A DNA stretch of 64,000 bases from Salinarimonas sp. (GTDB lineage Bacteria > Pseudomonadota > Alphaproteobacteria > Rhizobiales > Beijerinckiaceae): assembly GCF_040111675.1 (NCBI RefSeq), contig NZ_CP157794.1, positions 186,001 to 250,000 of the forward strand, written 5' to 3'. Position numbers and translations under genes: made by a program. Shown piece by piece: positions 5,028-20,690 of the stretch (position 1 is its first letter; each line of letters opens with the position of its first letter). Under the pieces are notes generated by a model, which saw only the letters and a program-made list of their open reading frames with translations, did no database searches and was not told the origin of the DNA.

Positions 5028-5044
5028 CGCGGGGTCGTCTCCGA

Positions 5045-5803
5045 TCAGATCGTCAGCGAGAGCGCATCGTCCGCGAAGCAGCCTTCGATCTCGGCCACTA
5101 TAGTGGGGCAATTCTCGGTCAGGAACGGGAAGAAGTGCCCTCCCTGGAACACCTGCATGCGCACAGGCGCACGCGTGACACGCTCCCATCCGCGAACGGA
5201 GTCGATCGGCACGTGCATGTCCTCCGCGCCGGCGAGAAGCGTGAAGGGCACGTCGAGGATCGGCTCCGGCGCGAGGCGGTAGGACGCGACGAGAGCGAAG
5301 TCCGCGCGCAGCATGGCCGCGAGATAGGCGCGCACGTCGGCGTCGGCGAGCGCGTCCTCAGGAAGACCGCCGAGCTCCGCCACCGCCTCGACGAAATCGG
5401 CATCCGGCAGCGTCACGGCGCGGCGGACGAAGGGCGACGGGACGAGGCTCGGTTCCCGGCATCCCGAGAGGAACAGGCGCGCCGGCGTATGCGCCTCGCC
5501 GAGACGGCGCGCGACCTCGAAGGCCAGGAGCGCGCCGAGGCTGTGGCCGAAGAAGGCGGTGGGCGCTGGCTCGAGCGCGCCGAGTGCGTCGGCGAGGCTC
5601 GCCGCGAGGCTCGGTATGGCGTCGGCCTGCCCGGCTCCCGCTTCGTGCGGATAGCGCGCAACCAGGAGCTCCACGTCCGGATCGAGACGCGCGCGAAACG
5701 GCTGGAAGGCGTCGGAGGTGCCGCCCGCATGCGGAAAGCAGACGAGCCGCGCACGGGGCGCGCAGCGGCCCTTCTCGCAGAAGAGCTCGTTGAAGAGGGT
5801 CAT
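5045..5803 (-). CDS. Type II thioesterase
   Basis: 252 aa alpha/beta-hydrolase of the TEII family that accompanies NRPS/PKS clusters. The nucleophile is Ser88 in GHSLG, followed by an Asp in the AGAEDMHVP segment and His223 in GGHFF, the usual triad. N-terminal CFPHAGG is the typical oxyanion-side motif. Such enzymes hydrolyse wrongly loaded or stalled acyl groups from carrier proteins. The NRPS here has no integrated TE domain, so this enzyme might also release the product. That is an inference. Confidence 0.9.
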   Translation of the reverse strand: MTLFNELFCEKGRCAPRARLVCFPHAGGTSDAFQPFRARLDPDVELLVARYPHEAGAGQADAIPSLAASLADALGALEPAPTAFFGHSLGALLAFEVARRLGEAHTPARLFLSGCREPSLVPSPFVRRAVTLPDADFVEAVAELGGLPEDALADADVRAYLAAMLRADFALVASYRLAPEPILDVPFTLLAGAEDMHVPIDSVRGWERVTRAPVRMQVFQGGHFFPFLTENCPTIVAEIEGCFADDALSLTI

Positions 5804-5816: not shown

Positions 5817-7007
5817 TCAGGTCAGCACGCCGTCGGCGAGCGCATCGCCGATGGCGAGAAGCTGTATCTCCGTCGTGCCCTCGTAGATCCGCAGCGCCCG
5901 GATCTCGCGGTAGAGCCGCTCCGTTTCGCTGCCGAGCGCGCAGCCGGCTGCGCCGCACAGCTGCAACGCGTCGTCCACGATCGTCTGCGCCGCTTCGGTG
6001 CCGACGACCTTGGCCATGCAGGAACGCACCGCTGCGCTCGGCTGGCCCGAGTCGGCCTCCCAGGCCGCCTGCAGCGCGACGAGCGTCACCCCGTTCCCGG
6101 CGCACGCCATGCGCGCGAGGCGCGTCGCGCCGAGCTGCGTGCGCGCGAGCGGGCCCGCCTTCACGATCCGCTCGCGCGCATGCCCGAGCGCGACCTGCAG
6201 CGCACGCCGTGCGAACCCGGAGGCGGCTGCGGCCACGGTCAGGCGGAACGCATCGAGCGTCTCTCCCGCGAGCATCAGCCCCAGGCCCTCCTCCCCGACG
6301 AGAGCCGCGCGCGGCGTCTCGCACCCCGAGAGCCGCAGGTGACCGATCGCTCGCGGCGCGACCAGCGCCACCGGCTCCGTGGCGAGGCCGCTCGCAGCGC
6401 GGGCGTCGACGACGACGAGGCTGAGCCCGAGCGGTCCCGGGACGCCCGTCCGCGCCAGGACGCAGTACAGGTCGGCGACGCCGGCATGCGCGATCCACGC
6501 CTTCTCGCCGTCGATTTGGAAGCGGTCCCCCTCCGCCCGCGCCGTGGTGGCGATCCGGGCGAGGTCGGACCCGACGCTCGGCTCCGTGAGCGCGAACGCG
6601 CCGATCACACGACCCTCGCGAAGAGCCCTCACCGCGCCCGCATGGGCGTGGCCTCCGAGCCCGATCGCGAAGGCGCTCAGCGCCTGGATCGAGAAGGAGA
6701 AATCAAGGAGGTCCTCGAGCCAGGCGAAGGCGTGGCGGCACAGGCAGACGGCCCGCAGGTCCCAGGGCGCGCCCGGCTCCGCGGGGATCGCGGCCGCGAG
6801 CCAGCCGTCCCGGGCGAGGAGCGCGACGAAGCCCCGTGCGGCCGCCTCCGGCGCCAAGCCGGCGATGCGGCGCACCTCGTCGCGGGAGTCCCGGACCCAC
6901 CCCTGAAGAGATTCGGCCAGCCGTCGATGCCGCTCCTCGAGCAGCGGCAGCGCCAGCACGGCGGGATCGAACAGCGGCGCGGCGTCGAGATGGTCCGACG
7001 CGTTCAT
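5817..7007 (-). CDS. Acyl-CoA dehydrogenase-like flavoenzyme
   Basis: 396 aa, full length for the ACAD family. Visible features are the FAD-binding segment GAFALTEPSVGSD, the second flavin motif DGEKAWIAHAG, and the C-terminal YEGTTEIQ with the expected catalytic base Glu376. Its start overlaps the stop of the C45 hydrolase gene (ATGA). In metabolite clusters ACAD homologues oxidise carrier-protein-bound amino acyl groups. In triacsin- and azaserine-type pathways a flavoenzyme is thought to oxidise carrier-bound hydrazine intermediates. By context it may desaturate a hydrazinoacetyl-ACP, but that is inferred. Confidence 0.87.
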   Translation of the reverse strand: MNASDHLDAAPLFDPAVLALPLLEERHRRLAESLQGWVRDSRDEVRRIAGLAPEAAARGFVALLARDGWLAAAIPAEPGAPWDLRAVCLCRHAFAWLEDLLDFSFSIQALSAFAIGLGGHAHAGAVRALREGRVIGAFALTEPSVGSDLARIATTARAEGDRFQIDGEKAWIAHAGVADLYCVLARTGVPGPLGLSLVVVDARAASGLATEPVALVAPRAIGHLRLSGCETPRAALVGEEGLGLMLAGETLDAFRLTVAAAASGFARRALQVALGHARERIVKAGPLARTQLGATRLARMACAGNGVTLVALQAAWEADSGQPSAAVRSCMAKVVGTEAAQTIVDDALQLCGAAGCALGSETERLYREIRALRIYEGTTEIQLLAIGDALADGVLT

Positions 7008-8074
7008 GGCAGGGCCTCCGCATTGGGATATTGGGCTCGTGCGCTCAGGACGAGGCCGGGGCCGCGCCGCGGATCGCCGCCACGCAGAGTGATGCGCCCC
7101 GCCGCCGGCTCGAGAACCACCGCCGCGACGGTCCGCTCCCGCGAGAAGCCGGCGGGCGGACGCACGTTGACGGGGGGCTGCGCCAGCGCGTCGAGGATCG
7201 CTTCGGCGTCGTCCGGCAAGGCGTCGATCAGCGACGCAGCCGCCCGTCGACGCGCTGTCGAGCCGTTGCGTGCGAAGATGTTGAGGGTGTCGTCCGCGAG
7301 GTGGTCGGGGTGCTCGAAATGGTTCGCATGGGCGAGGCGCGCACCCTCGATCACGCGCAGCCGTCCCGGCGCCGCCTCGACGCAGGCGACGCGGCGCGGG
7401 TCGCAGAGCATGAAGCTGCGCGACGAGGCGAGCGGCAGCGTCTCCAGCATGGCGAGGGCCTCGGGAACGTCGCGCGCGCGATCGATCAGGTGGCGGATGA
7501 CGAGGTAGGGCGGCACCCCCGCGCCCCATTCGCCGGCGAGGACCAGGTTGAGGCCGACCGCGAGACCCGCCGCGTTCATGCCTAGATAGCCGAGAAGACC
7601 CGTGAAGGTGACGATCACGGCGCGCCCGCCCGCGATGCCTTCGCCGCTCGTCTCGAGGACGTGGAGCTGCTCGTCCATCGGGCCCGCCAGATCCACGGTC
7701 TGGGCGAGGACGGAGCGTCCGTTCTCCGCAACCGCGATCGTGGTGCAGTCGCCCAGCGTGTCGAAACGGCTGTAGCCCATCAGCTCGCGCCGCGCCTGCA
7801 GCAGGACGGCGTCCTCGAGCGGGACGCCCGCGCCGATCGCGAGCCCCTCGATCTCGCTCCAGAGATCGGGCGTGTGGTGCGCGATCGCGCGCGCGATCCC
7901 GGCGAGATCCTCCGAGGCGCGCGCCCGGTCGAACGGCTGTCGCGCGGACAGACGATCGAGCCAGGCGTGCCCGTCGTGGAGGAAGCCGCGGATGCGGTCG
8001 CCTGCGGCGCGACCGTGCGCTTCGCCGCGCAGCCGTGGCGGCCCGCGCAAGGCGATGACCGGGACGCGTCGCAT
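7004..8074 (-). CDS. C45 family Ntn-hydrolase (acyltransferase/amidase)
   Basis: 356 aa. It resembles the acyl-CoA:6-aminopenicillanate acyltransferase (C45, cl. PB) family. The likely nucleophile is Cys110 in LGDCTTIAVAENG, preceded by the helix with RRELMGYSRF, and NAAGLAVGLN forms part of the core. Family members self-process before the Cys, which then becomes N-terminal, and hydrolyse or transfer acyl groups on amines. It sits between a GNAT acyltransferase and an ACAD, with one-base overlaps on both sides. A neat reading is that it removes an acyl group placed by the GNAT after oxidation, or forms an amide in the product. Neither is shown by the sequence. Confidence 0.78.
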   Translation of the reverse strand: MRRVPVIALRGPPRLRGEAHGRAAGDRIRGFLHDGHAWLDRLSARQPFDRARASEDLAGIARAIAHHTPDLWSEIEGLAIGAGVPLEDAVLLQARRELMGYSRFDTLGDCTTIAVAENGRSVLAQTVDLAGPMDEQLHVLETSGEGIAGGRAVIVTFTGLLGYLGMNAAGLAVGLNLVLAGEWGAGVPPYLVIRHLIDRARDVPEALAMLETLPLASSRSFMLCDPRRVACVEAAPGRLRVIEGARLAHANHFEHPDHLADDTLNIFARNGSTARRRAAASLIDALPDDAEAILDALAQPPVNVRPPAGFSRERTVAAVVLEPAAGRITLRGGDPRRGPGLVLSARAQYPNAEALP

Positions 8075-8673
8075 CAGGCGAGCTCCAGATGCGCCTGCAA
8101 CCGCTCCGAGACGGCAGGCCATTCGGCGCGGAGAACGGAATAGAAGATTGCGTCCCGCCGCCGCCCGCCGGGCATGTAGTTGAAGCTTCGCAGCACGCCC
8201 TCCTCGACGGCGCCGATGTTGCGCAGGCCGCGCCGGGCCCGGTCGTTCAGCACGTCGGTCTTGAACTCCACCCGCTCGCAGCCCAGGCGCTCGAAGGCGT
8301 GGCGCAGAAGGACGTGCTTGGCCGCGGCGTTGACCCCGCGCCCCCTGAAATCGCGTCCGAGCCACGACCAGCCGATCTCGATGCGGCGGTCCGCCTCGGC
8401 GAGGTTGCCGAACGACATCGAGCCCGCGACGCGGCCGCTCGCCTTCTCGATCACCGAGAAAACGTAGCGGCGCCCGGCCGCGATATCGGCGAGGCCGGTG
8501 GTCATGAAGGCGTCGAGATCGGCCTCGGCGTCGATCCGGGTGGTGAAGTACGTCCAGATGTCGGATTCGAAGGCGATCTGCGCGAGAGCGTCGCGATCGT
8601 GCGCCTGAAGGGGTCGAAGCAGCACGGTCTCGTTCTCGAGCCGCGCATCGGCGAGTTCGTCGGACCAGGTCAT
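8074..8673 (-). CDS. GNAT N-acyltransferase (RimJ/RimL type)
   Basis: 199 aa. The GNAT fold is recognisable from RIEIGWSWLGRDFRGRGVN, where RDFRGRG is the pyrophosphate-binding loop of motif A, followed by LNDRARRGLRNIGAVEEG typical of RimJ/RimL-like enzymes. It would acylate an amine from acyl-CoA. It lies directly after the ACP gene (1-bp gap) and overlaps the C45 gene by one base. In the triacsin pathway a GNAT acylates the carrier-bound hydrazine (recalled, not checked here), so this enzyme is a candidate for the same step. The acyl donor is unknown. Confidence 0.85.
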   Translation of the reverse strand: MTWSDELADARLENETVLLRPLQAHDRDALAQIAFESDIWTYFTTRIDAEADLDAFMTTGLADIAAGRRYVFSVIEKASGRVAGSMSFGNLAEADRRIEIGWSWLGRDFRGRGVNAAAKHVLLRHAFERLGCERVEFKTDVLNDRARRGLRNIGAVEEGVLRSFNYMPGGRRRDAIFYSVLRAEWPAVSERLQAHLELA

Positions 8674-8674: not shown

Positions 8675-8932
8675 TCAGGCAGCCTCCGCTCGACGAACGC
8701 GGTCCAGTCGCTCGACCACGCCGCGCCCGGTGGTCATCCCGGCGATATCGGCTTCCGTGAGGCTCGAGAGGCCGACTCCCAGCTCGCGGCAAAGGGCGGT
8801 GACCAGCATCACCAGCTTCATCGACGTGAGGCCGATCTCCTCGGTGAGGTGGGCGTCGAGGTCCAGCTCGGGGCCGACCGCCGGCATCAGTCGCGCGACG
8901 CAGGCGCGCAGCTTCGTCTCAATGTCGTCCAT
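8675..8932 (-). CDS. Acyl carrier protein
   Basis: 85 aa carrier protein. The phosphopantetheine site is Ser37 in EEIGLTSMKLVML, with Leu-Thr replacing the common Asp-Ser-Leu context. The four-helix pattern and length fit a stand-alone ACP. Its start overlaps the end of the AMP-ligase gene by 14 bp, pairing ligase and carrier. It probably carries the acyl or aminoacyl substrate activated by that ligase for the GNAT and ACAD enzymes downstream. Confidence 0.88.
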   Translation of the reverse strand: MDDIETKLRACVARLMPAVGPELDLDAHLTEEIGLTSMKLVMLVTALCRELGVGLSSLTEADIAGMTTGRGVVERLDRVRRAEAA

Positions 8933-10478
8933 GGGTCTCGTCTCCGTATGCGGCGTCGATGGCCTCGCGATGGCGTGCGAGGATGGAGGGTCGGCGGGGC
9001 TTGCCCTGGGAGGTCAAGAGCCCGTTCTCTTCCGTGAAGGGCGGCACGACGATCGCGTCGCCGATTCGGGCGCCGTGCGGGACGCGCAAGGCGCGCACGC
9101 GTCGGCGAGCCTCCTCGGGGTCGGCCCCCTCCGCGAGCGCGATCAGCGCGAGGAGGTGCGGGCGCCCGGAGCCGGCGAGGACGCATTGCGCGATTTCCGG
9201 CAGCGCGAGAGCGGCTTCCTCGATCGGTCGCCCCATAACGTTGCGGCCGTCCTCGAGCACGATCACGTCGTCGGACCGCCCCAGGATCCACAGGAAGCCG
9301 TCGGCGTCGATGCGGCCGAGATCGCCGGTGCAGACGACGTCCTCGCCGCGGAAGATGCGCTCCGACGCGCCCTCGGGCGCGAAGCGGTAGGCGGAGCCGA
9401 CGGGATGGCGGCTGCGCACGAAAACGACGCCGTTCTCGTCGATCCAGACCTCCTTTCCCCAGACCGGCCGCCCGGCGCTTCCCGGACGATGGGCGCCGGG
9501 ATGGTTCTTCGTCACGATGCAGGTCTCGTTCATGCCGTAGCCTTCGTAGATCGGCAGTCGGCAGGCCTCGTGGAGGAAGTCCAGGGTCTCGCGCCGGATG
9601 GGGGCGGATCCGGTCCAGAGGTAGCGGATGCGCGCGCCGGTGACGGTCCGCGCGGCCGTGCGGTGATCGCAGCCCGTCAGAGCGGCCTCCGCCTCGATCA
9701 GCCCGCGAAGGCTTTCGAAGAAGGCGGGGACGCCCATCACCACCGTCGGTGCGCTCTCGGCCAACGTCCCGAGCGCGAGCGTGGGCGTGGTCACGACGAG
9801 ATCGCAACCATAGAGGAGCGCCGTGTAGATCCAGTATCGCTGCTGGAGGAGGGACAGGGGCAGGAAGACGAACAGGCGGTCCGCAGGGCCGTGGTCGAAC
9901 AGAAGCTGCGTCGCGTGGATGCCGGCGCCGATCGAGGCCCGGCTCGCCGCGAGGCCCTTCGCCTCGCCGGTACTGCCGGACGTGAACTTGAGGGCGGCGT
10001 CGTCTTCCGGGCGGCGCGACGCCCACGGCGGGGCGGCGGCGCCGACCTCCTCCGTCTCCAGCGCGTGCAGGAATGCGTCCGGGTCGAGAGTGCCCTCCGC
10101 GCCCGTCGTCGCGAAAAGGGCGGCGAGCCCATAGCGCGCGGCCAGGGCCGCGGAGGCCTCGAACTTGTCGGGCTCGAAGCCCGCGACGACGGCGCCGAGG
10201 CGCAGGCACGCGAGATCGAGCACGATCCATGCGAGGCCATTCGGCGCGCAGATCCCGACGGCGTCGCCGGCGCGGACGCCGAGCCGGGCGAGCCGCGCGG
10301 CCGCGCGCCCGGCGAGCGTCGAGACCTCCGTGTGGCTGAGACGCAGGCGCGTGCCCGGACGGATCACCTCGACGAAGCGATCCCGCGCCGGCTCTAGCGC
10401 GCACAGGCGGTCCATGAGGTGCGCGGGATCGTCCGGCTGGACGAAGTCGCGCGGCATCGGTGCGGCGGTGGCGGTCAT
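8919..10478 (-). CDS. AMP-dependent synthetase/ligase (acyl- or aminoacyl-ACP ligase)
   Basis: ANL-superfamily enzyme of 519 aa from the ATG at 10478. An overlapping GTG at 10487 would add three codons, but GGAG lies at proper distance only from the ATG. Motifs: A3 KFTSGSTGEAKG, A5 IYEGYGMNE, A7 TGDLGRIDADG, A8-like ILGRSDDV. It has no fused carrier. The adjoining ACP gene overlaps its 3' end, so it most likely adenylates a small carboxylic acid and loads it onto that ACP. By analogy with the triacsin ligase the substrate could be hydrazinoacetic acid; a fatty acid cannot be excluded. Confidence 0.85.
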   Translation of the reverse strand: MTATAAPMPRDFVQPDDPAHLMDRLCALEPARDRFVEVIRPGTRLRLSHTEVSTLAGRAAARLARLGVRAGDAVGICAPNGLAWIVLDLACLRLGAVVAGFEPDKFEASAALAARYGLAALFATTGAEGTLDPDAFLHALETEEVGAAAPPWASRRPEDDAALKFTSGSTGEAKGLAASRASIGAGIHATQLLFDHGPADRLFVFLPLSLLQQRYWIYTALLYGCDLVVTTPTLALGTLAESAPTVVMGVPAFFESLRGLIEAEAALTGCDHRTAARTVTGARIRYLWTGSAPIRRETLDFLHEACRLPIYEGYGMNETCIVTKNHPGAHRPGSAGRPVWGKEVWIDENGVVFVRSRHPVGSAYRFAPEGASERIFRGEDVVCTGDLGRIDADGFLWILGRSDDVIVLEDGRNVMGRPIEEAALALPEIAQCVLAGSGRPHLLALIALAEGADPEEARRRVRALRVPHGARIGDAIVVPPFTEENGLLTSQGKPRRPSILARHREAIDAAYGDETHGRH

Positions 10479-10483
10479 CGGCG

Positions 10484-13400
10484 TCACTCCGCAGCCGTCG
10501 AGACGGGCGCCGTCTCGTTCAGGTGGGCGCCGATCGCGCGAATGCTGCCGAGGCGCAGGAAGTCGCGCATGGCGATCCGCACGCCGGTGCGGCGAGCGAT
10601 TTCCAGGATCACGCGCACGGCCGCGAGCGAGGTTCCGCCCAGCTCGCCGAAGCGGGCCTCCACGTCCTCCACCGGCGCACCGAGAACGTCGGCGAAGATC
10701 CCGGCGACGACGCGCTCCCGGTCGTCGGCCGGACCGCGGACGGCTTCTCGCCCGGTCGCGGCCTCCGGTGCGAGCGCACGGCTCGCGAGCGCCTGGCGAT
10801 CCACCTTGCCGTTGGCGCTGAGAGGAATCGCCGGAAGCGCGACGAACCGCTCCGGGACCATGTACCCCGGAAGGCGCGCCGCCACGTGCGCGCGCAGGGC
10901 TTCGGCGTCGAGCGCGGCGCCGGAAGCGGGCGAGACGTAGGCGACGAGAACGTCTCCCGAGGGGCCGCGGGCGGCGACGGCGGCCGCCTCGCGCACGTCC
11001 GGGTGCCCGCCGAGGCAGGCCTCGATCTCCTCGAGCTCCACCCGGTTCCCGTTGATCTTCACCTGAAAGTCGCTCCGGCCGAGAATCTCGATCACGCCGT
11101 CGGCGCGGTACCGCCCGAGGTCCCCGGTGGCGTAGAGGCGCTCCCCCGTCGGCGCGTGCGTGAAGAAGGCGCGCTGCGTTCGTTCCGGGTCACGCCAGTA
11201 GCCGCGCGCCAGCCCCGTTCCGGCCGCGTGGAGCTCGCCGGTGACGTCGTCGGGGCACTCGCGCAGGTATCGGTCGAGCACGTAGTAGAGATTGTTCGTC
11301 GTGGGGACGCCGTAGGGAACGAGGGTCGCCTGCGGATCCGAGTTCTCGATCGGATGCACGATGTTCCAGACCGTGGTCTCCGTCGGGCCTCCGAGCCCGT
11401 AGACGGCGAGATCCGGCCGCGCCCGCGCGAGATCCACCGTCAGCGGCACGGGGATCTTGTCGCCCGACATCATGACGAGCCTCAGGCTCGGCGGCAGGCC
11501 GGCGTCGAGCAGGAGCCGAACGATCTGCGGCACCGAGTTCCAGATCGTCACCCCGGCCGCGCGCGCCCGCTCCGCCCAGGCCTGCGGCTCGAGTATCTCG
11601 TCCGCGCGCGGCAGGACCAGCGCCGCTCCGCAGGAGAGCGCCCCGAAGATGTCGTATACGGACAGGTCGAAGTTGAAGGCCGAGATCCCGAACAGCCTGT
11701 CGGTCGGCCCAGCCTGAAAGCGCTGGTTGATGTCGTGCACGAGGTTGAGCACCGAGCAGTGGCTGATCATCACGCCCTTGGGCACGCCCGTCGATCCGGA
11801 GGTGAACAGGACGTATGCGAGATCGTCCTGGGCGCGCCGTTCGCGCCGGTTGTACGCGAAGGCGATCGGGTCGCCGCACAGGCTCGCATCGACGCCGAGG
11901 CGCGCGGTTCCCGCCAGCGCCTCCTCGGCGTGCGCGGGCAGCACCGGCTGCGCCAGCGCGAGGCGCGCTTCGCCGAGAGCGAGGAGCGCGTGGATCCTGT
12001 CGCGCGGCAGATCGGCCGCGACGGGAAGGTAGGCGCCGCCCGCCATCAGCACGCCGAGCGCGGCGGCCACCTGCTCCCAACCCTTCGTCATGACGACAGC
12101 GACGAGCTCGTCGCGCTGCAGGCCGCGCTCCGTGAGCCAGGCGGCGATCGCGGACGCGCGGGCGGCGAGCGCGCCGTAGGAGATCGTCTCTTCCGGCGCG
12201 ACGATCGCTACGGCGTCGGGACGCTCCGCCGCGAGCCGCAGGAACGCGTCCTGCACCATGCCATCCGGAATTGCATCTTCCGTCGCGTTGACGGCCGCGC
12301 GGCGGGCGCGCTGCTCCGGCGGCAGCAGGTCGGGACGGGCCTCGCTCCACCCGCCGCCGTAGGCGAGCTTGCGCAGGAAGGCGCCGAATGAGTCGGCGAA
12401 GGCGTCCGCGAAGCCCTTGGCGAAGAGTGCCTCCACCACGTCCAGCTCGATCTCGAGCCCCTGATCGGTCTCCAAGACGAAAGCGTTGAGCCAGACCTGC
12501 GGCGTCTGCGAAACGGCGTAGATGCGCCGCCCGAGCCGCGCGAGGGCGCGCCCGTCCGCTCCAGGCGCGCCGATCGCGCAGTTGAAGGTCACGGGCAGCG
12601 GCAGCGGCGCTCCGCCGGGCCTGCCGAATCCGCGCATGATCTCCAGGCCCGAGACGCTGCGATGGTCGAGCGCGGCGGCGAGCCCGCCGCGCAGGGCCGC
12701 CGCACGCGCCTCCACCGTCGCCGGCTCGTGCCGGAACGGCGCCGGGAGCGGCCGCGTGAAGACGCCGACCACCGCCTCGACCTCGGGAACCGTCGGCGGA
12801 CGATCGGCCAGGGTCACGTTGAGCGAGAAGTCCTCGCCGCCGCACCAGCACGAGAGCGTCTCGCAGAAAGCGCTCGCGAGAGCCACCGGCGCCGACAGCC
12901 CGCGATCGCGCGCCGCGGCCTGGAGGCGCGACCAGTCGCGTGGGCTCAGACGAACCAGGCGGCGCGCCGAGCGCGCTCCGCTCAGTCCGTTCGGGTCCTT
13001 TCGGGTCGGCAAGGCCGGCCCGGGCGGCAACGTCGCGGCGGCCTCGCGCCAAAAGGCGAGATCGTCGGCGTCGGGGACCTCGCGCGCGAGCGCCTCGAGG
13101 CAATCCGCGAAGCAGCTCGACGGGGCGGAGGCGAAAGCCGCCGGATCGTCGTAGGCGTCGCAGAGGTCGCGCACGAGCAGGAACATGCTCAGCCCGTCGA
13201 CGGCGAGACCGTCGTGGGAGAGATGCAGCCGCATCCGGTCCGGGCCGAGCAGGCTCAGCCGCACGGTGAGCAGCGTGGCGCTCGCGAGCGGCGCGACGCG
13301 GTGGGACAGCCGATCGCGCAGCGTGGCCAGCGCCTCCTCCCGCTCCTGCGCGCCAGCCTGGGCGAGATCGAGGACGTCGAAGTCCGGCTCGACGCCTCCC

Positions 13401-13786: not shown

Positions 13787-14046
13787 CACGGGCCTCCATG
13801 GACCGAGGTTTCGAGCAGGCTGTCCGACAGCGCGGCTATGCTGCGGTCGGTCATGAGGGCCTCGAAGCCCACCTTGAGCCCGAGCTCCGCGCGCAGCCGG
13901 TACTGCAGCGTGACGGCGGCGAGCGAGGTGAGCCCGAGATCGGCCACGAGCGTGGCCGAGGGCGCAGGCGGGTCCGGCAGACGCAAGACGCGGTGGAGGG
14001 CGCCGGAAAGCCACGCCTCGAGATCGGTGCGGTCGAGCGCGCTCAT
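13786..14046 (-). CDS. Stand-alone carrier protein (PCP/ACP)
   Basis: 86 aa. Phosphopantetheine attachment Ser41 in ADLGLTSLAAVTLQYRL. The helix pattern and the following GFEALMTDRSIAAL fit a peptidyl or acyl carrier. It sits between the cupin/MetRS-like gene (4-bp overlap) and the NRPS (1-bp overlap). It could therefore carry the upstream acyl partner accepted by the NRPS Cy domain, or the N-N unit. It is the second free carrier in the operon besides the ACP at 8675-8932, so two loading events are likely. Confidence 0.87.
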   Translation of the reverse strand: MSALDRTDLEAWLSGALHRVLRLPDPPAPSATLVADLGLTSLAAVTLQYRLRAELGLKVGFEALMTDRSIAALSDSLLETSVHGGP

Positions 14047-16085
14047 TCCGCAGCCTCCGGCGTCCGAGTCGCGACGGAGACGGGCGAGGCGTCCCCGATC
14101 GGCATGAAGAACGCCGCGCGTGCGAGCGCGATTGCGCTCCCGTACGGGACGAGCCGCGCTGCGTCCGGCCAGCGCGTCGCGCCCTCGAGGCCGAGCGCTT
14201 CCGCGAGCGCCGCAGAGAAGCGCGGCGCGAGGGCCGCGGCGGCGTCGGCCAGGAGACGCGCCGCGGCGAGCTGGAGCGCGACGGCGGTGCGCCAGCGGTC
14301 CGCCTGTGCGGGGCGGCCGCGCAGATGCGCCTGCGAGTCCATGTAGCGGCGGGACGTCGTCACGAGATCGTCGAGTCGGGCGCAAGCCCGGTTGAGCGAG
14401 AAGCTTCGGGCCCCGAGCAGGCGTCCGAGCGCGCGCCGGGTCTCCTCGAGGTCGCCGAGGAAGGCCGTCTGCTCGGGCGTCCAGTCGCCCGCGTCGGGCG
14501 CACGCCCATCAAAGTCCCGCTCGACGATCGCGCCCACGTCGCGCAGCCAGCTCTGCCAGCTCCCGATGAGCGTTTCCGAGACGAACCGATCGAAATCGGC
14601 GCGGCTGAAATTCGTGCGCGACACCTCCCCACGGGTGAGCGAGAGGTAGAGCCGCACGGCGTCGACGCTGCTTTCGTCGAGGATCTCCTTGCCCCAGATC
14701 GCGTGCCGCCGGCTGGTGGAGAACTTCAGGCCGTCGAGGAGGTAGAACTCGTTGTAGTGATAGTCGATGTCCGGCGTCCAATCCGGATAGGCGGCGGCGT
14801 ACAGCGCGGGATACAGGATGGCGTGGTAGAAGCTGTTGTCGTACCCGAAGAAGTGCACGATCTTCCAATCGTCCTTCGGCGCGAGCTTGTCCCAGTCGCG
14901 ACCGGCCCGTCGTCCGACGGCCTCGATGCCGTAAAGGAAGCCGTAGGCCATTTCCGGCCAGACCCAGATCACCAACCGTCCCTCTTCGTCCTGCGTGGGC
15001 GCGACGCCCCAGGCGGCGGGGTGGGTGAGAGGCACGGCCGGGGCGGCGGCGATCACCGCGTCGGTGAGAGCGCGGATCCGCGCCGGAACGCGCGCACGCG
15101 CCTGATGCGCCCGGATCGCCTCTCCGGCGCGGCCGAGATCGATCGCCGGCCGCGTGAGCGCGCCGACGCGCGGCGGCGCTTCCGAAAGGCGCGAGCGCGG
15201 CTCGTCCAGGTCGACCACGAGGTTCGGCATGCCGCACTCCTCGCAGATGTTGCCGCCGCAGCCGGAGCCGCAATGCGGGCAGCGCCCGCCGACATCGACC
15301 TCGTAGAGGTACGCGCCGGTGCCGCCGTCGAACAAGGCGGGCGTCTCGCCGACGGTGACGGCCGCATGCGTCAGGACCCGGCCGAAGAAGGCGCGCAGTC
15401 CCTCCTGGTATTCCGGAGCGGAGCGGGTCAGCGTGAACTGGTCGAGCGCGACATCCATCAGGCCGAGCGTCGCCTCGATCTCGGCGGCGTAGTGCGCGGC
15501 GACGGCCTCGGGCGTCGTCCCCTCGTCGCGGGCGCGCCCGACGACGTAGCTCTGAAAGTCGTCGCTGCCGGTGACATGGTAGGCCTCCGCACCGTTCATG
15601 CGCTGGAAGCGGGTGTAGACATCCGCCGCGAGATAAGGGCCGGAGAGGTGGCCGATATGGAGGTCGCCGTTCGGAGTCGGAGGCGTCGAGAACACGAAGA
15701 CCGGCCGCCCGCGAATCACGTCGGCGTCGCCGGCGGCCGCAGCCTCGGCGGCCTGACCCGGGTCGCGCCAGTAGAGGTCCGAGAAGACGAGCTCCTCGTC
15801 GGAATCGTTGCGCAGGACGTGACCCTCGAACGGCTCGAAGACGACCACGTCGCCGGCGTGGACGGGAACCGGCCCGTCTGCGGTCTCGACCACGCCGCGG
15901 CCCGCCAGGATGACGAAGGTCTCGGCCTCGTCGTGCCGATGCGGGCGGGTCTCGCCGCCGGGCGCGATCCGTCCCCAGGACGCGTGCGCGGCGGGAGCGT
16001 CGACGCGACCCAAGGGGCCGGCCGCAGCCATGGCGATCCCAAAGCTCGGCGCGAAGGATGCGTCTTTCAGGCGTTGAACTCTCAT
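14043..16085 (-). CDS. Cupin / methionyl-tRNA-synthetase-like fusion (hydrazine-forming enzyme)
   Basis: 680 aa. Residues 1-120 are a cupin with metal ligands His49, His51, Glu55 and His89. From about residue 130 it is a class I aminoacyl-tRNA synthetase of MetRS type: HIGH at 143-146, a four-Cys zinc knuckle (C269, C272, C276, C281 with C284 nearby), and KFSTS at 454-458 in place of KMSKS. Fusions of this architecture (Spb40 in s56-p1, Tri28 in triacsin) join N6-hydroxylysine and glycine. The MetRS-like part activates glycine and the cupin rearranges the ester to an N-N bond, giving N6-(carboxymethylamino)lysine. The gene follows the N-hydroxylase and FAD oxidase in the same order as those clusters and overlaps both neighbours by 4 bp. 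A housekeeping MetRS role is unlikely given the fusion and context. Confidence 0.93.
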   Translation of the reverse strand: MRVQRLKDASFAPSFGIAMAAAGPLGRVDAPAAHASWGRIAPGGETRPHRHDEAETFVILAGRGVVETADGPVPVHAGDVVVFEPFEGHVLRNDSDEELVFSDLYWRDPGQAAEAAAAGDADVIRGRPVFVFSTPPTPNGDLHIGHLSGPYLAADVYTRFQRMNGAEAYHVTGSDDFQSYVVGRARDEGTTPEAVAAHYAAEIEATLGLMDVALDQFTLTRSAPEYQEGLRAFFGRVLTHAAVTVGETPALFDGGTGAYLYEVDVGGRCPHCGSGCGGNICEECGMPNLVVDLDEPRSRLSEAPPRVGALTRPAIDLGRAGEAIRAHQARARVPARIRALTDAVIAAAPAVPLTHPAAWGVAPTQDEEGRLVIWVWPEMAYGFLYGIEAVGRRAGRDWDKLAPKDDWKIVHFFGYDNSFYHAILYPALYAAAYPDWTPDIDYHYNEFYLLDGLKFSTSRRHAIWGKEILDESSVDAVRLYLSLTRGEVSRTNFSRADFDRFVSETLIGSWQSWLRDVGAIVERDFDGRAPDAGDWTPEQTAFLGDLEETRRALGRLLGARSFSLNRACARLDDLVTTSRRYMDSQAHLRGRPAQADRWRTAVALQLAAARLLADAAAALAPRFSAALAEALGLEGATRWPDAARLVPYGSAIALARAAFFMPIGDASPVSVATRTPEAAE

Positions 16086-17146
16086 GCCGCGATCTCCGAA
16101 GGAAGAAGGTGGGTGAGCCGCTCGACCGCGGCCTGCGCGATCGCCGGGGCGAGGCGGTATCCGGAGCCGTTGCAGGCTCCGACGAACAGCATGCGGCCGC
16201 CGGCGCCCACCGGGGCCACGAGCGGGGCTCGATCGGGCGAGTAGGCGTCGCAGAACACCCGCCCGCCGCGAACTCGATCGACGAAGGACGGCGCAAGACC
16301 GTGGAGCAGCGCGGTCGCCTCCGCGAGGTGCGCTGGCGCGACGCCGCCGACGCAGGCGTCGGGATCGACGTCCCAATCCTCGCACGTGTAGGAGAACAGC
16401 CAGGCCCCGAGCCACGGAATCGGCAGCAGGAACGCGTCCTCCGCGATCAGCAGCTCGGCCGCGTCCTCCGCTGCGACCGGCGCCGCGACGTGGAGCGCCA
16501 CGATCCGCTTGGTGCGGACCCCGAGCGGCTCCGTCAGCGGGGCGAAGGGGGGCGAGGCAGCCCAGGGCCCGGGCGCGAGCACGGCGGCCCGCGCGAGGAG
16601 GGTGTCGCCCGTCGTGAGCCCGAAGGCGATCCCGTCGTCGCGCTCGGTGATCGTCGCGACGCCGACGCCCTCGATGCGCGCCACACGTCCGTGAAGCTCC
16701 GTGGCGAGCGTGCGGGCGAGCTGCCCGACATCGGCGTGGTTGGCCCCGTCCACGTCGAAGGCGGAGCGCTCCGGCCGGCTCGGGACGACGGGTCCGGCGT
16801 CGCGGGCCGGCCTCACTCGCGACTGCCGGGTGAAGCGCTCGAGCCAGCGTGGCTCCGCCGTCGGCGCGTGCACCCGCATGCGGACCCGGCGCCAGCGCAG
16901 CGCCGGCCGGGCGGCGGCGAAGGTCTCGTAGAAGATCTGGGACGCGTGCGCCATCTCCCGGACCACCTCGGTCCGCCCGGTCGGGAAGTGCATTCCCGCC
17001 GAGCGGGCCGAGGCGCCGAGGGCGACGAGGTCGCGATCGATTACCGTGACGCCGAGGTCGGCGGCCGCCGCGAGGCGGTGGGCGACCATCCAGCCGACGA
17101 CGCCCCCGCCGACCACGACGACGTCCGTTCGAAGCCGTTCTTGCAT
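16082..17146 (-). CDS. FAD-dependent amine oxidase (DAO family)
   Basis: 354 aa. The N-terminal Rossmann motif is VVVVGGGVVGW at residues 9-19, followed by the DAO-fold pattern. The C-terminal segment FVGACNGSGYRLAPAIAQ is the usual FAD-contacting end of glycine/D-amino-acid oxidases. In the s56-p1 and triacsin cassettes the equivalent flavoenzyme (Spb39/Tri27) oxidatively cleaves N6-(carboxymethylamino)lysine to hydrazinoacetic acid plus 2-aminoadipate 6-semialdehyde. The same place between hydroxylase and cupin/MetRS fusion supports that role here. It starts 8 bp after the N-hydroxylase stop and shares ATGA with the fusion gene. Confidence 0.88.
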   Translation of the reverse strand: MQERLRTDVVVVGGGVVGWMVAHRLAAAADLGVTVIDRDLVALGASARSAGMHFPTGRTEVVREMAHASQIFYETFAAARPALRWRRVRMRVHAPTAEPRWLERFTRQSRVRPARDAGPVVPSRPERSAFDVDGANHADVGQLARTLATELHGRVARIEGVGVATITERDDGIAFGLTTGDTLLARAAVLAPGPWAASPPFAPLTEPLGVRTKRIVALHVAAPVAAEDAAELLIAEDAFLLPIPWLGAWLFSYTCEDWDVDPDACVGGVAPAHLAEATALLHGLAPSFVDRVRGGRVFCDAYSPDRAPLVAPVGAGGRMLFVGACNGSGYRLAPAIAQAAVERLTHLLPSEIAA

Positions 17147-17154
17147 GACGAACC

Positions 17155-18456
17155 TCACGCGCTCTGGAGCTGGGCGTCGGGAACCTGCGGCCGCCAGTCG
17201 ATCATCGAGGGGAGAGCCGCGACGCCGCGGGGGCGGCCGAGCAGGCGCGACAGGATTTGCCCGCTTCTCCAGGCGAGGAGGCTCAGGTTGGGGTCGGCGA
17301 GGCCCTTTTGGCGCATCGCCCGGTTCTGTACGAAGATGTGCCGGTCCGGCGGGCCGTCCCAACGGGCGGCGTAGGTGTCGTCGAGCGCGATCTCCTCGCC
17401 CTCCCACGTCAGGCGCGGGGCGAGACCCGACAGCATCTCGAGGTCGGGATAGCGATAGCCGGTCGCCAGGACGATCACGTCGGCGTGGACCAGCTCCGTC
17501 TCGTCGGTCTCGACGTGTCGCGTTACCGCGAGCCAGGCGCCGCCGTCGCGGCCGACCGTCTTCAGGCGGCGCCCGGGCATAAGGGCCGCAAAACCGCTCT
17601 CGCCGTCCACGAACCGGCGCATGTACAAGGCCTGGTAGATCGCCTTCAGGGTCTCGGGGGAAATGCCGTCGCTCGCGAGGATGTTGCGCGTCACGAAGTC
17701 CGCACGGTCGGCGAGCTGCCGCGACGCGAAGAGCGCGACCTGGCAGGGCATGAAGAGGTCGTTCGTGAACGGGCTGTCGTCGATCGGCCAGAAGCATTCC
17801 CGGCTCGAGATCCAGGTGGTCCGCGCGGGCCGTTGCGACCCGCGTCGCGTGAGCAGGTCGAGAACCACCTCGGCTCCCGACTGGCCGCCGCCGACGACCA
17901 CGACACGCCGGCCAGCAAGCGAGGCGCCAATCGTGAGATGATTGTTGCAATGATAGATCGTATCTCCCAGCTTGTCTGCGAGCTGCTCGGGAACCTTCGG
18001 CGTCTTGCCGATGCCGATCGAGACGGAGCGCGCCCGCAGCAGACGCTTGCTCGTGCGCACCGTGAAGTCGCCGTCGAACCCGATCTCCTCGACCGGCTCG
18101 CCGAATCGAACGAGCGTGTTCCGATCCGCCGCCCAGGTCATGTAGTCGGCGAACTCCCGGCGCGAGACGGATTCGAAGCGCGCGTTGAGGAAATGGTACA
18201 GGCGCCCGGCCTGATGCAGATAGTTGACGAAGGAATAGGGATTGGACGGATCGTGAAGGGTCACGAGGTCCTTGAACAGCGAGACCTGAAGGCTCGCGTC
18301 CTCGATCTGCATGCCGTCGTGCCAGCTGAACGACGGCTTCGCGTCCAGGAATGTCGCGTCGACCCCAGCCCGCTCGAGAAGGCAGGCCAAGCTCAGGTTC
18401 GCTGGGCCGACGCCGACGCCGATGCAGGTGTGGACGGGTTCGTTCGCCTGCGTCAT
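17155..18456 (-). CDS. Flavin-dependent L-lysine/L-ornithine N-monooxygenase
   Basis: 433 aa, SidA/IucD/PvdA family. FAD site GVGVGPANLS near residue 13, NADPH site VVVVGGGQSGAEV near residue 190, substrate-region DDSPFTNDLF, and the C-terminal VLATGYRYPD motif near 330. Members hydroxylate the side-chain amine of Lys or Orn. Downstream partners (DAO oxidase, cupin/MetRS) point to lysine N6-hydroxylation as the first step of hydrazine formation rather than hydroxamate siderophore synthesis. First gene of the operon. A good ribosome site GGGAGGA lies 5-6 bases before the ATG. The promoter should lie in the 18457-18599 divergent region. Confidence 0.93.
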   Translation of the reverse strand: MTQANEPVHTCIGVGVGPANLSLACLLERAGVDATFLDAKPSFSWHDGMQIEDASLQVSLFKDLVTLHDPSNPYSFVNYLHQAGRLYHFLNARFESVSRREFADYMTWAADRNTLVRFGEPVEEIGFDGDFTVRTSKRLLRARSVSIGIGKTPKVPEQLADKLGDTIYHCNNHLTIGASLAGRRVVVVGGGQSGAEVVLDLLTRRGSQRPARTTWISSRECFWPIDDSPFTNDLFMPCQVALFASRQLADRADFVTRNILASDGISPETLKAIYQALYMRRFVDGESGFAALMPGRRLKTVGRDGGAWLAVTRHVETDETELVHADVIVLATGYRYPDLEMLSGLAPRLTWEGEEIALDDTYAARWDGPPDRHIFVQNRAMRQKGLADPNLSLLAWRSGQILSRLLGRPRGVAALPSMIDWRPQVPDAQLQSA

Positions 18457-18515
18457 GCCTTTCCTCCCGGTGGCTCCGCCGAAGCGCTGAGACCGCTTCT
18501 AATTGTTTGTCATTG

Positions 18516-18523: not shown

Positions 18524-18549
18524 AGTTGCCACGGAGGGGCGCGAAGTTA

Positions 18550-18600
18550 CGTGAACGTGGCGTGAAATTCGTGTTTTTGAGCGTTGCGCACTGCGTGAAA
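18550..18600 (+). promoter_or_regulatory. Candidate SARP operator array upstream of the regulator
   Basis: CGTGAA occurs at 18550, 18561 and 18594, offsets of 11 and 33 bp, i.e. all on one helical face. A degenerate CGTTGC lies near the intermediate phase at 18582. The same CGTGAA-N5-CGTGAA unit sits in the other divergent region at 1032-1048. Placement between the N-monooxygenase operon and the BTAD regulator gene suggests autoregulation and control of the large operon. The local sequence is also richer in A/T than its surroundings. Confidence 0.5.
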
Positions 18601-20690
18601 TGCATGCGATGGTTCCTGTAGAATGTGCGGTCGAGATCGGCATGGTCGAGTTGTTCCTCTTCGGTGAGCCCTGTCTGCGAGGCGGCGTCGGCCGGGCGAA
18701 CGCCCCCGCCTTGCGCCGGCAGACCACCACGCTGCTCGGACTCCTCGTCGTCGCTGGCGCGGCGGGGATGCGGCGCGAGAGGCTCGCCTCCCTGCTCTGG
18801 CCGGACCGCGACGAGGAACATGCGCGCGCCAGCCTGCGGCAGGCGCTCACGGCGTTGAGGCGGGTTCTCGAGGGGACGAGCCTTACTCTCGTCGCGGGCG
18901 TCTCAATGGTGCAGCTGCAGGGCGAGGCGTCCAGCGTGGACGTCTGGGCGTTCGAGCCCGAGGCCGCCGACCTCATCGAGCGCAGCGGCCCGCCGGAGCG
19001 GTTCGCGGCGGTGGCGGATCTCTACCGCGAGGAGCTGATGCCGGGTCACCTGTGCGCTCGCCCCGCCGAGGAGGCGATCGCCGCCGCTCGCGAGCGAATG
19101 CACCAGATGGCGCTGCGGCTCGTCGAGGCCTACAGCCGACTGACCAACCCCGGCGCGCCCTGCGAAGCGTTCGCCCGCAAGCTTCTCGCGACCGATCCCG
19201 TGGCCGAGGAGGCGCACCGCGCTCTGATCCGATGTGCGCTGCATGACGGGCGCAGCAATCGGGCCCGTCGTCTCTTCGATCAATGCCGCGAACTCCTGAG
19301 CGTCGAGCTCGGCGTCGAGCCGGAGCCCGAGACCCTCGAGCTCGCGGGTGCGCTCGGCGCCGGCGCAGCGCCGGCGCGCGATGTGACGTGCGCTCCCGAG
19401 GCGGAGAGCCCGACGCTTTCGCGACACGAGGACTTACCCCCGCCCGGCGTCCCCGCGCCGGGCCCCAAGAGGCCGAACGGCGTCGCGCCGAACGTGTCGG
19501 CCAGGCCGGCGCTCGTCGTCCTCCCGTTCGAGGCGCGCGGCGACGACGAGGCTTTCGCGATCGCGCACGGCATCGTCGAGGAGCTCGCCTGTGGGATCGC
19601 TCGGATGCGGAATTGCGACGTGATCGCGCGACAGTCAGCCTATGCCTACAAGGACCGTTTCGTCGACGCGCGCACGATCGGCCAACAGCTCGGCGTCGGT
19701 TACATCGTCGACGGCGCGCTCAATCTCGAGGGTCCCGTGCTGCGGCTCCACGTGCAGCTGGTCGACGCGCGTTCCGCCGTGGTGATCTGGAGCAGACGAT
19801 ACGACGAGCGCATCTCGAATGCGATCGATCTCCAGCAATCGGTCGCGAGCCAGATTGCGGGTGCGCTCGCGCCCGGAATTCGGCGCCGGGAGATCGAGCT
19901 CGTCGGCGCGCGCCCGCTCGGCGATCTGGACGTTTATGGGCTGGTGCTGCGCGCCTATCCTCAATTATGGACACATCGGCGCGACGGCAACGCGAGCGCG
20001 CTCTCGCTCCTCGACCGTGCGCTGGAGATCGATCCGGGCCATTGTCTCGCGCTGTCTCTGAAGAGCTGGCTCCTGGCGATGAAGGTCTGCTATCTTTGGT
20101 CGGGTCAGCCGGAGCGTGAACGCGCCTCGTCTCTCGAGCTGGCCGACCGGGCGGCGCAAAACGCCGACGACGATCCAACGGCGCTCGCCGCTCTCGCAGC
20201 GACCTATTCCCTCTCCTCTGCCGATCTCCACCGGGCCGCCTTCTTCGTCGCCTCTAGCCTGGAGGCAGATCCCTGCAATGCCTGGGGGTGGATGCGAAAG
20301 GGCTGGCTGCACGCCATCGCCCGGGAGCCGGCTGAGGCGATCGCCGCGATCGATCGCGCCCAGACGCTCAGCCCGATCGACCCGTTCCTGTTCAACTGCT
20401 ATTTCGGGCGCGCGATGGCCGAGAGCGTGACCGGCAATTTCGCGGCTGCCGCCGACCTCGTCCGAGGCGGCATCAACCGGAGCCGCGGCGCTGTCTGGGC
20501 CTACCGAATGCTCGCCTCGTTCTGCTGTCGCGCGGGCGACATGGATGGCGCGCGCGAAGCCGTCGACCGCTTCCGCCAGCACCATCCGACCGTCACGATC
20601 TCGGACCTGCGCCGCTGCCTGCCCCCTGCGCTGGTGGCGGGCGACCAGGACCACCTCGTGGCGCTCGCTGCGCTCGGGCTGCCCGATTGA
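18600..20690 (+). CDS. SARP/BTAD-type transcriptional regulator with TolB-like and TPR domains
   Basis: 696 aa from the first ATG; in-frame ATGs at 18609 and 18642 are possible, and the last gives the most family-like N-terminus (MVELFLFGEP) with a weak GAGAT ribosome site. Order: winged-helix OmpR/PhoB-type DNA-binding domain (RRERLASLLWPDRDEEHARASLRQAL), BTAD helical domain to about residue 250, a Pro-rich linker, a TolB-N/adenylate-cyclase-associated domain (PALVVLPFEARG onward, about 300-430), and tetratricopeptide-like helices to the end. Such regulators activate neighbouring biosynthetic operons, as SARPs do in actinomycetes. It is divergent from the 12-gene operon and lies beside phased CGTGAA repeats, so it is the likely cluster activator. 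Confidence 0.87.
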   Translation: MHAMVPVECAVEIGMVELFLFGEPCLRGGVGRANAPALRRQTTTLLGLLVVAGAAGMRRERLASLLWPDRDEEHARASLRQALTALRRVLEGTSLTLVAGVSMVQLQGEASSVDVWAFEPEAADLIERSGPPERFAAVADLYREELMPGHLCARPAEEAIAAARERMHQMALRLVEAYSRLTNPGAPCEAFARKLLATDPVAEEAHRALIRCALHDGRSNRARRLFDQCRELLSVELGVEPEPETLELAGALGAGAAPARDVTCAPEAESPTLSRHEDLPPPGVPAPGPKRPNGVAPNVSARPALVVLPFEARGDDEAFAIAHGIVEELACGIARMRNCDVIARQSAYAYKDRFVDARTIGQQLGVGYIVDGALNLEGPVLRLHVQLVDARSAVVIWSRRYDERISNAIDLQQSVASQIAGALAPGIRRREIELVGARPLGDLDVYGLVLRAYPQLWTHRRDGNASALSLLDRALEIDPGHCLALSLKSWLLAMKVCYLWSGQPERERASSLELADRAAQNADDDPTALAALAATYSLSSADLHRAAFFVASSLEADPCNAWGWMRKGWLHAIAREPAEAIAAIDRAQTLSPIDPFLFNCYFGRAMAESVTGNFAAAADLVRGGINRSRGAVWAYRMLASFCCRAGDMDGAREAVDRFRQHHPTVTISDLRRCLPPALVAGDQDHLVALAALGLPD

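What the first reader, a model, noticed from the sequence alone, without database searches (positions are those of the whole stretch)
14043..18456. Complete hydrazinoacetic-acid (N-N bond) cassette in an alphaproteobacterium
Three adjacent, coupled genes encode an amino-acid N-monooxygenase, a DAO-type FAD oxidase and a cupin/MetRS-like fusion. Seen directly: domains, HIGH and KFSTS motifs, zinc Cys knuckle, cupin ligands H49/H51/E55/H89. Established knowledge (recalled): Spb38-39-40 (s56-p1) and Tri26-27-28 (triacsin) make N6-hydroxylysine, fuse it to glycine, and cleave the product to hydrazinoacetic acid. Gene set and order are the same. The characterised examples I recall are mainly actinomycetes, so a Rhizobiales version with a different downstream set is noteworthy.
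Basis: partly seen in the sequence, partly recalled or inferred. Interest (0 to 1): 0.95.

Follow-up and report, generated by a model that had tools for sequence, protein, structure and literature searches.

The report
Azaserine-type diazo gene cluster, unfused carrier
One bacterial genome, likely that of an alphaproteobacterium, carries homologues of every gene in the published minimal set for azaserine, a reactive diazo antibiotic, with one carrier protein still encoded on its own where nearly all compared relatives have it fused to its neighbour, and it is predicted to make azaserine or a close analogue.

Summary
The three genes are there and form a hydrazinoacetic-acid (HAA) cassette, but they open something larger. 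Read on both strands and just past the left window edge, the locus holds homologues of AzsL-M-N-O-P-Q-S-T-F-B-G-E-D: the published minimal azaserine set plus AzsP and AzsD. The NRPS has AzsO's ester-forming Cy signature. So the downstream set is not "different", and azaserine-type clusters also occur in named Gram-negatives; a 2026 survey reports hydrazone clusters in Proteobacteria.

New: (1) the carrier protein that 34 of 36 compared clusters fuse to the cupin/MetRS enzyme is a separate 86-aa gene here (13786-14046) and in one Bradyrhizobium, the ancestral state that Shikai et al. 2023 proposed. (2) The diiron oxidase AzsE ends in a short acidic-hydrophobic tail in 31 of 33 loci where the NRPS is seen, 0 of 6 without it. 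The thioesterase AzsB, shown by others to act on AzsO, has it in 10 of 10 loci against 0 of 4, though the window's own misses the rule. AzsO begins with a docking domain of the kind that binds such tails, so the unresolved hydrazone-to-diazo step may happen on the NRPS.

The parts
1..904 (-). AzsD homologue (KS-III-like acyl transferase), start at 904; the gene runs off the window's left edge (G000:C1:185927-186904, 325 aa)
   Evidence: PF08541 hit across the window edge; protein P0132; PF08545+PF08541; 36% identity over 269 aa to the KS of the L034 azs-type cluster
1143..3374 (+). AzsE homologue, haem-oxygenase-like diiron oxidase (HDO), 743 aa, C-terminal tail ...ALDVLIL
   Evidence: PF14518; 49% identity to the HDO of the S. 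fragilis genome, L112; E563/H573/E635/H663/D667/H673 conserved; tail
3834..5189 (-). AzsG homologue, cytochrome P450 (start uncertain)
   Evidence: PF00067; 46% over 84% to S. fragilis L024
5045..5803 (-). AzsB homologue, thioesterase; tail ...DDALSLTI (does not meet the strict tail rule)
   Evidence: PF00975 E 5e-41; 39% over 209 aa to the G. harbinensis locus L074
5817..7007 (-). AzsF homologue, acyl-CoA-dehydrogenase-like hydrazinoacetyl-CP oxidase
   Evidence: PF00441/PF02770; 47% to S. fragilis L024 over the 65% held there; Glu377 in 52 of 52
7004..8074 (-). AzsT homologue, C45 autoproteolytic peptidase (desuccinylase)
   Evidence: PF03417, NF040521 above its cut-off; Cys107 (counted from 8065) in 59 of 59
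8074..8673 (-). AzsS homologue, GNAT (HAA succinyltransferase)
   Evidence: PF13302; 64% over 100% to S. fragilis L024
8675..8932 (-). AzsQ homologue, stand-alone carrier protein
   Evidence: PF00550; 48% over 61% to the G. harbinensis locus, no hit to S. fragilis at 1e-5
8919..10487 (-). AzsP homologue, AMP-dependent ligase that would load succinyl-HAA
   Evidence: PF00501; 50% over 89% to S. fragilis L024
10484..13786 (-). AzsO homologue, NRPS: TubC-type docking domain - Cy - A - CP
   Evidence: PF18563, PF00668, PF00501, PF00550; DxxxxD, Asn, Asn signature; A pocket DLYNMSLVW; 43% over full length to S. fragilis L024
13786..14046 (-). stand-alone carrier protein (86 aa), homologous to the C-terminal CP domain of AzsN; ATGA overlap with the fusion gene, TGATG overlap with the NRPS gene
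   Evidence: PF00550 E 1e-10; blastp match at 1e-3 to 33 of 34 fused carrier tails
14043..16085 (-). AzsN homologue, cupin/MetRS-like hydrazine synthetase, 680 aa, without the C-terminal CP
16082..17158 (-). AzsM homologue, DAO-type FAD oxidase
17155..18456 (-). AzsL homologue, lysine-type N-monooxygenase
18600..20690 (+). BTAD/TPR (SARP-like) regulator divergent from azsL; likely cluster regulator
   Evidence: PF03704; association by position only

Best explanation
The locus encodes homologues of every enzyme of the published minimal azaserine gene set, in an almost co-linear array, and is predicted to make azaserine or a close O-(hydrazono/diazoacetyl)serine from lysine, glycine and serine. 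Inferred order: AzsL would hydroxylate lysine N6; the cupin/MetRS enzyme would join it to glycine; AzsM would release hydrazinoacetic acid; AzsS would succinylate it and AzsP load it on AzsQ; AzsT and AzsF would give hydrazonoacetyl-AzsQ; AzsD would move this to the separate 86-aa carrier protein, which takes the place of the fused AzsN carrier domain; the Cy domain of the NRPS would esterify it to the serine hydroxyl; the thioesterase would release it. The last oxidation, hydrazone to diazo, is most likely done by the HDO, probably docked by its C-terminal tail to the NRPS N-terminal docking domain. Gene content, motifs and tails are shown. All chemistry is inferred from the characterised Azs, Tri and Dob enzymes.
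For: Gene content against the Shikai Table 1 and minimal set by tblastn: L 49, M 46, N 55, O 43, P 50, S 64, T 47, F 47 (cut at the locus edge), G 46% to S. fragilis L024, E 49% to L112, B 39% and Q 48% to G. harbinensis L074, D 36% to L034. Ester-Cy signature D/D/N/N as in S. fragilis; Thr to Asn in 36 of 36. A pocket close to that of AzsO. Stand-alone CP at the place of the fused CP. Coupled or overlapping frames through L-M-N-CP-O-P and S-T-F. Each cluster ORF named here is open. The first 60 residues of all 36 NRPSs align as one docking domain with R/K in the strand (PF18563 itself was run on the window's only). HDO and thioesterase tails.
Against: No product or expression data. No AzsH/I (lysine supply, dispensable in triacsin), AzsC, AzsK, AzsR or AzsU appeared among the ORFs scanned around the cluster; they were not searched for one by one. 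PPTase-type domains exist elsewhere in the genome. The strict tail rule fails for the window's own thioesterase. The HDO step is unproven in any azaserine system. Shikai found that AzsO takes HDA only from AzsN's CP, not from AzsQ, so the separate CP must do that job here, which is untested.
Confidence: 0.77

Rival explanations
1. The end product is the nitramine N-nitroglycine or another N-oxidised derivative rather than the diazo ester, because the same gene set is shared with the nng cluster.
For: S. noursei locus L057 has matches to 13 of 14 window queries, all but the 86-aa carrier at 1e-6; nng and azs inventories are nearly the same.
Against: NNG needs a second P450 (NngS) and a hydrolase (NngA). 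Only one P450 was found among the cluster ORFs scanned; NngS and NngA themselves were not searched for.
Confidence: 0.08
2. The pathway stops at the hydrazone, or builds it into a larger peptide, as may be the case in Sinorhizobium meliloti pSmeSM11b or Xenorhabdus.
For: The S. meliloti cluster lies beside other NRPS genes and shows no P450 or thioesterase match in the 38 kb held; the two Xenorhabdus genomes have no HDO match at 1e-40.
Against: The window has HDO, P450 and thioesterase, and no further NRPS was seen among the neighbouring ORFs scanned.
Confidence: 0.1
3. The cassette uses other amino acids (N-hydroxy-DABA or -ornithine, or an acceptor other than glycine), as Apy9 or Por11 do.
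For: The best NCBIfam model of the N-monooxygenase is a histamine N-hydroxylase, far below its cut-off; the family is promiscuous.
Against: The N-monooxygenase is 49% identical to that of the S. fragilis, 48% to the G. harbinensis and 47% to the S. noursei locus, against 33% to that of the second cassette; the later enzymes are HAA-type.
Confidence: 0.05
4. The fusion is a true methionyl-tRNA synthetase with a cupin appendage.
For: PF09334 and MetRS structures are its nearest solved relatives by sequence.
Against: All MetRS models listed score far below their cut-offs, whereas a separate gene of the same genome passes two of them; cupin ligands invariant; cluster context.
Confidence: 0.01

Closest known systems
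azaserine clusters azs (Streptomyces fragilis) and aza (Glycomyces harbinensis)
   Same: Homologues of L, M, N, O, P, Q, S, T, F, B, G, E and D; L-M-N-O-P-Q-S-T in the same order; ester-Cy DxxxxD and Thr-to-Asn; docking domain; HDO tail.
   Different: Carrier domain of AzsN is a separate gene; no saccharopine dehydrogenase, isocitrate lyase, MFS or LuxR gene among the cluster ORFs scanned; D is divergent from E; F-B-G follow T.
azaserine-type cluster of Bradyrhizobium sp. U87765 (L010)
   Same: Separate carrier protein between N and O; D and E divergent.
   Different: Its CP ends in ...GKSGVLI, the window's does not; NRPSs only 44% identical; the stretch held ends inside E.
Sinorhizobium meliloti SM11 plasmid pSmeSM11b (L103) and Caulobacter sp. 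CCUG 60055 (L013)
   Same: Alphaproteobacterial azs-type clusters with the D/E divergent pair.
   Different: Carrier fused to AzsN; L103 has no P450 or thioesterase match in the stretch held and neighbours larger NRPS genes.
N-nitroglycine cluster nng (S. noursei, L057)
   Same: 13 of 14 window queries match.
   Different: Needs a second P450 and a hydrolase (PMC13274452); carrier fused.
dob (Nocardia ninae), triacsin, s56-p1
   Same: HAA cassette and hydrazonoacetyl-carrier enzymes (from the papers).
   Different: PKS or other downstream logic; dob uses a ferritin-like oxidase Dob3, and none showed among the ORFs scanned here.

Membership tests
HAA cassette (Spb38-39-40 type) | N-monooxygenase, DAO, cupin-MetRS adjacent, with cupin ligands and HIGH/KFSTS | tested here: met
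HAA cassette (Spb38-39-40 type) | makes hydrazinoacetic acid from Lys and Gly | not testable with these tools
   needs enzymes and LC-MS
azaserine cluster | minimal set L, M, N, S, T, F, Q, O, B, G, E (PMC10445470) | tested here: met
   Q found against G. harbinensis but not S. fragilis at 1e-5
azaserine cluster | ester-forming Cy domain: DxxxxD with Thr replaced by Asn | tested here: met
   D, D, N, N
azaserine cluster | NRPS activates serine | tested here: inconclusive
   pocket DLYNMSLVW against DLWNMSLIW in S. fragilis; pocket positions recalled; predicted as Cys in the literature although Ser is used
azaserine cluster | AzsN carries a fused CP domain | tested here: not met
   separate gene. 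Shikai says most CP-bearing AzsN homologues lie in azs clusters, does not list the fusion as defining, and proposes a separate ancestor
azaserine cluster | azaserine is produced | not testable with these tools
   no metabolite data
N-nitroglycine cluster | NngS (second P450) and NngA | not tested
   only one P450 among scanned cluster ORFs; no direct search
SLiM / beta-hairpin docking pair | TubC-type N-terminal domain on the NRPS | tested here: met
   PF18563 on the window's NRPS; aligned N-terminus in 36 of 36
SLiM / beta-hairpin docking pair | short charged-hydrophobic C-terminal tail on the partner | tested here: met
   HDO of the window; the window's thioesterase (...LSLTI) does not meet the rule
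SLiM / beta-hairpin docking pair | physical binding | not testable with these tools

The most novel reading that the evidence does not exclude
[quoted passage not shown] This would explain why no oxidation of the free ester was seen in published assays. The window's cluster, with its carrier unfused, would show the pathway in an early, modular form.
Probability: 0.5. Interest if true: 0.82.

Novelty: new variant of a known kind. Interest (0 to 1): 0.62.

Why it matters
[quoted passage not shown] The tail pattern gives a direct, cheap test: oxidise the NRPS-bound rather than the free hydrazone, with and without the tail. The unfused carrier gene supports a published guess about how the azaserine assembly line evolved and gives a separate, small protein for in vitro work. 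The cluster also adds a chromosomal azaserine-type locus of a likely alphaproteobacterium, the deepest NRPS branch of those compared, to a family characterised in actinomycetes.

Tried and rejected
Different downstream set: rejected. True MetRS: rejected. No AzsD: first believed from the window alone, then found across the left edge. AzsN with fused CP: not so here. A Pfam scan of the small carrier found nothing because I gave a stretch of 277 bases in the wrong frame; in frame it is PF00550 at 1e-10. Separate carrier as one shared oddity: on 20 rows chosen by me (14 of 36 NRPSs, 6 of 12 outgroup rows, model LG+G4) window plus Bradyrhizobium as one clade is rejected (AU p 0.0099), all fused rows as one clade is rejected (p 0.001), window+L010+L013 is not (p 0.30), so the basal place of the window is not certain. 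The AU test on the full 48 rows did not finish. Of 14 other NRPSs, two without a DxxxxD match were dropped as outgroup. The carrier as query against 5.8 billion proteins found only itself, among 18 candidates: a word-based search, so weak evidence of rarity. The first N tree used L006 as outgroup, which is far too long a branch, and is not relied on. Fusion lengths overran a stop in a few NRPS-free loci; lengths here are.

Weak points of the tail result: the rule ([DE], 0-3 residues, [VILM][VIL] end) was written after the HDO tails had been seen; the six HDOs without NRPS form one clade, hence one event; L086 was counted with the NRPS group although its contig ends before the NRPS, so I give 31 of 33 without it (32 of 34 as run). 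Of the 35 NRPS loci four gave no HDO tail: L010 (cut, not held for extension), L039 (not extended) and the two Xenorhabdus (no HDO). L061/L130, whose HDO frame breaks early, was left out. The thioesterase check came later with the rule unchanged: 9 of 13 at a 60% length filter, then 10 of 10 with and 0 of 4 without the NRPS when all 14 complete thioesterases in the stretches held were split by NRPS; the window's own, not in that count, fails. Three of those four are from Nocardia.
Full report
Check of the observation. The three genes are present as described on the minus strand. The N-monooxygenase (17155-18456), the DAO oxidase (16082-17158) and the cupin/MetRS fusion overlap by a few bases. 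The fusion starts at ATG 16085, not at the upstream end of the open frame. The MetRS models that match the fusion do so far below their cut-offs, while another gene of the 5.35 Mb single-contig genome passes two of them. The genus is not named by any search. The 40-64 kb stretch of the window matches Shinella, Sinorhizobium and Methylobacterium plasmid records at the DNA level, so an alphaproteobacterium is likely.

The cluster. Codon-position GC and Pfam show that the same strand continues with an 86-aa carrier protein, an NRPS (TubC docking domain, condensation-type domain, A, CP), an AMP ligase, a carrier protein, a GNAT, a C45 peptidase, an acyl-CoA-dehydrogenase-like enzyme, a thioesterase and a P450, down to 3834. 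An iron-containing redox enzyme of the haem-oxygenase-like class is on the other strand at 1143-3374. A KS-III-like gene crosses the left edge of the window. Table 1 and the discussion of Shikai et al. 2023 (PMC10445470; parts 1-4 of 6 of the text read) list these same functions for azaserine, and name L, M, N, S, T, F, Q, O, B, G and E as the minimal set. Against the S. fragilis locus L024 (contig NZ_BEVZ01000003.1) the identities are L 49, M 46, N 55, O 43, P 50, S 64, T 47, F 47 (cut at the locus edge) and G 46%; the HDO is 49% identical to that of the S. fragilis genome. Q has no hit there at 1e-5 but is 48% identical over 61% to G. harbinensis. AzsD is 36% identical to the L034 homologue.

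The NRPS. AzsO forms an ester with a Cy domain in which DxxxxD is kept and Thr and Asp are replaced by Asn. In an alignment of 36 such NRPSs (35 loci and the window) DxxxxD and the Thr-to-Asn change are in 36 of 36. At the second place 27 of 36 have Asn, the window and S. fragilis among them, and 9 keep Asp, G. harbinensis among them. The A-domain pocket, at positions that I recalled, reads DLYNMSLVW in the window and DLWNMSLIW in S. fragilis. The C45 Cys107 is in 59 of 59 homologues, and E563, H573, E635, H663, D667 and H673 of the HDO are conserved in the alignments; that these are catalytic or metal ligands is inferred from recalled family knowledge.

The separate carrier. From genome contigs the best 80 of 249 relatives of the fusion were fetched. 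In 35 of the 80 an AzsO-type NRPS directly follows. In 34 of these 35 the fusion protein is 743-774 aa, and the 86-aa protein of the window matches 33 of these 34 C-terminal tails by blastp at 1e-3; the ORF meets or overlaps the NRPS start, or lies 24 bases from it. In one, Bradyrhizobium L010, the fusion is 670 aa and a PF00550 carrier lies between. The window is the second separate case. In all 45 loci without this NRPS the fusion is under 700 aa. Shikai et al. proposed that the carrier was once an independent gene upstream of azsO. Rooted with 12 other Cy-type NRPSs, the AzsO group is one clade and the window is its deepest branch, with L010 (separate) and L013 (fused) next. Tests on 20 of the 48 rows reject all fused as one clade (p 0.001) and window+L010 as one clade (p 0.0099), but not window+L010+L013 (p 0.30). 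So the state changed at least twice. The short fusion in all NRPS-free loci favours a separate ancestor, but parsimony alone does not settle it, and the window is a long branch.

The tails. HDOs end alike where the NRPS is present: a variable linker and then a [DE]-L-[VLI]-I-like end. With one written rule, 31 of 33 HDOs from loci where the NRPS is seen match (window and S. meliloti L103 included), plus L086, whose contig ends before it (32 of 34 as run), against 0 of 6 without it; 6 of 518 other cluster proteins match, and 0 of 19 AzsD, 0 of 30 P450 and 0 of 39 AzsQ. The two misses, Caulobacter and S. meliloti, end in AFTL and ALTL; their fused carriers end in EEEGVSI (which fails the rule) and EEEGVLI (which meets it), and L010's separate carrier ends in GKSGVLI, without an acidic residue. 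With the rule unchanged, thioesterases match in 10 of 10 loci with the NRPS whose thioesterase lies in the stretch held, and in 0 of 4 without; the window's own (LSLTI) does not. All 36 NRPSs start with an alignable docking domain with R or K in the strand that would face the tail. In beta-hairpin docking the last five residues of a partner bind such a domain by salt bridges and two hydrophobic side chains, polarity may be reversed, and such tails have been listed on oxidases (PMC9113145, PMC6195595; passages read). AzsB is reported to release the product from AzsO. The oxidation of free hydrazonoacetyl-Ser was tried by Shikai et al. with recombinant enzymes and not seen. From this I infer that AzsE acts on the NRPS-bound ester. 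A search for papers holding both 'azaserine' and 'docking domain' gave only the Shikai paper, in which AzsO's domain is said presumably to bind a trans-carrier. I found no statement of an AzsE tail in the passages read.

Distribution. The fusion gene is in 1 of 385 sampled genomes of the class and 1 of 297 of the order at 1e-90, and 1 of 398 of the phylum at 1e-120, each time only the window's own; the samples overlap and did not draw the known Gram-negative carriers. Transposase or integrase-like genes lie on both sides, so gain by transfer is likely. A second N-monooxygenase, DAO and cupin/MetRS set lies elsewhere in the genome, beside a polyketide synthase gene.

Novelty. The 2026 Nature paper (PMC13061610; abstract and sections 6-10, 25, 26 and 60 read) found 129 hydrazone clusters in Actinobacteria and Proteobacteria, and a review (PMC11705231; passages) lists hydrazine synthetases of Mesorhizobium, Pseudomonas and others. 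The N-nitroglycine paper (PMC13274452; passages and section 15 read) treats the azaserine oxidation as unresolved and proposes the HDO for it, without docking in what I read. The locus is therefore a member of a known kind with an uncommon architecture. Which clusters the survey holds could not be checked, as supplements were not open to me.

Noticed in passing
L006 7144-11707 (G000:C1:4755144-4759707): A second N-monooxygenase - DAO - cupin/MetRS cassette in the same genome, 37-39% identical in the fusion, beside a KS-AT-KR-DH polyketide synthase gene on the other strand (14458-19953) and a DHDPS-like and an HMGL-like gene. Its nearest database relative is 97% identical, the next 66%. Product unknown.
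   Followed up: partly
L103 (S. meliloti SM11 pSmeSM11b 91723-129699): An azs-type cluster on a plasmid typed as conjugative, with AzsD and HDO but no P450 or thioesterase match in the stretch, next to larger NRPS genes, an MbtH gene and a PPTase: hints that the P450 is not needed for the diazo step.
   Followed up: partly
L059, L068 (Xenorhabdus): azs-type clusters with the ester NRPS but no HDO match at 1e-40 in the whole genome; they may stop at the hydrazone.
   Followed up: no
window 3371-3853 (+): OsmC-like gene directly after the HDO gene on the same strand; role unknown.
   Followed up: no
window 20706-21383 (-) and 21449-22252 (-): LysE-type exporter and TauE-type transporter beyond the regulator; a LysE exporter would suit an amino-acid-like product.
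   Followed up: no
window 22320-22796 (-), 22829-23311 (-); L007 10687-11706 (+) and 14266-14814 (-): DDE transposase and a transposase-like HTH gene on the right, integrase-core and DUF6538 genes on the left, with a gyrB gene (L007 11832-14309) between: mobile-element remains on both sides.
   Followed up: no
L025 (Kitasatospora aureofaciens ATCC 10762): Carries an azaserine-type cluster with fused carrier and ester NRPS.
   Followed up: no
window 18600-20690 (+): SARP/BTAD-TPR type regulator divergent from azsL; an AfsR/SARP site is reported at the nng cluster too.
   Followed up: no
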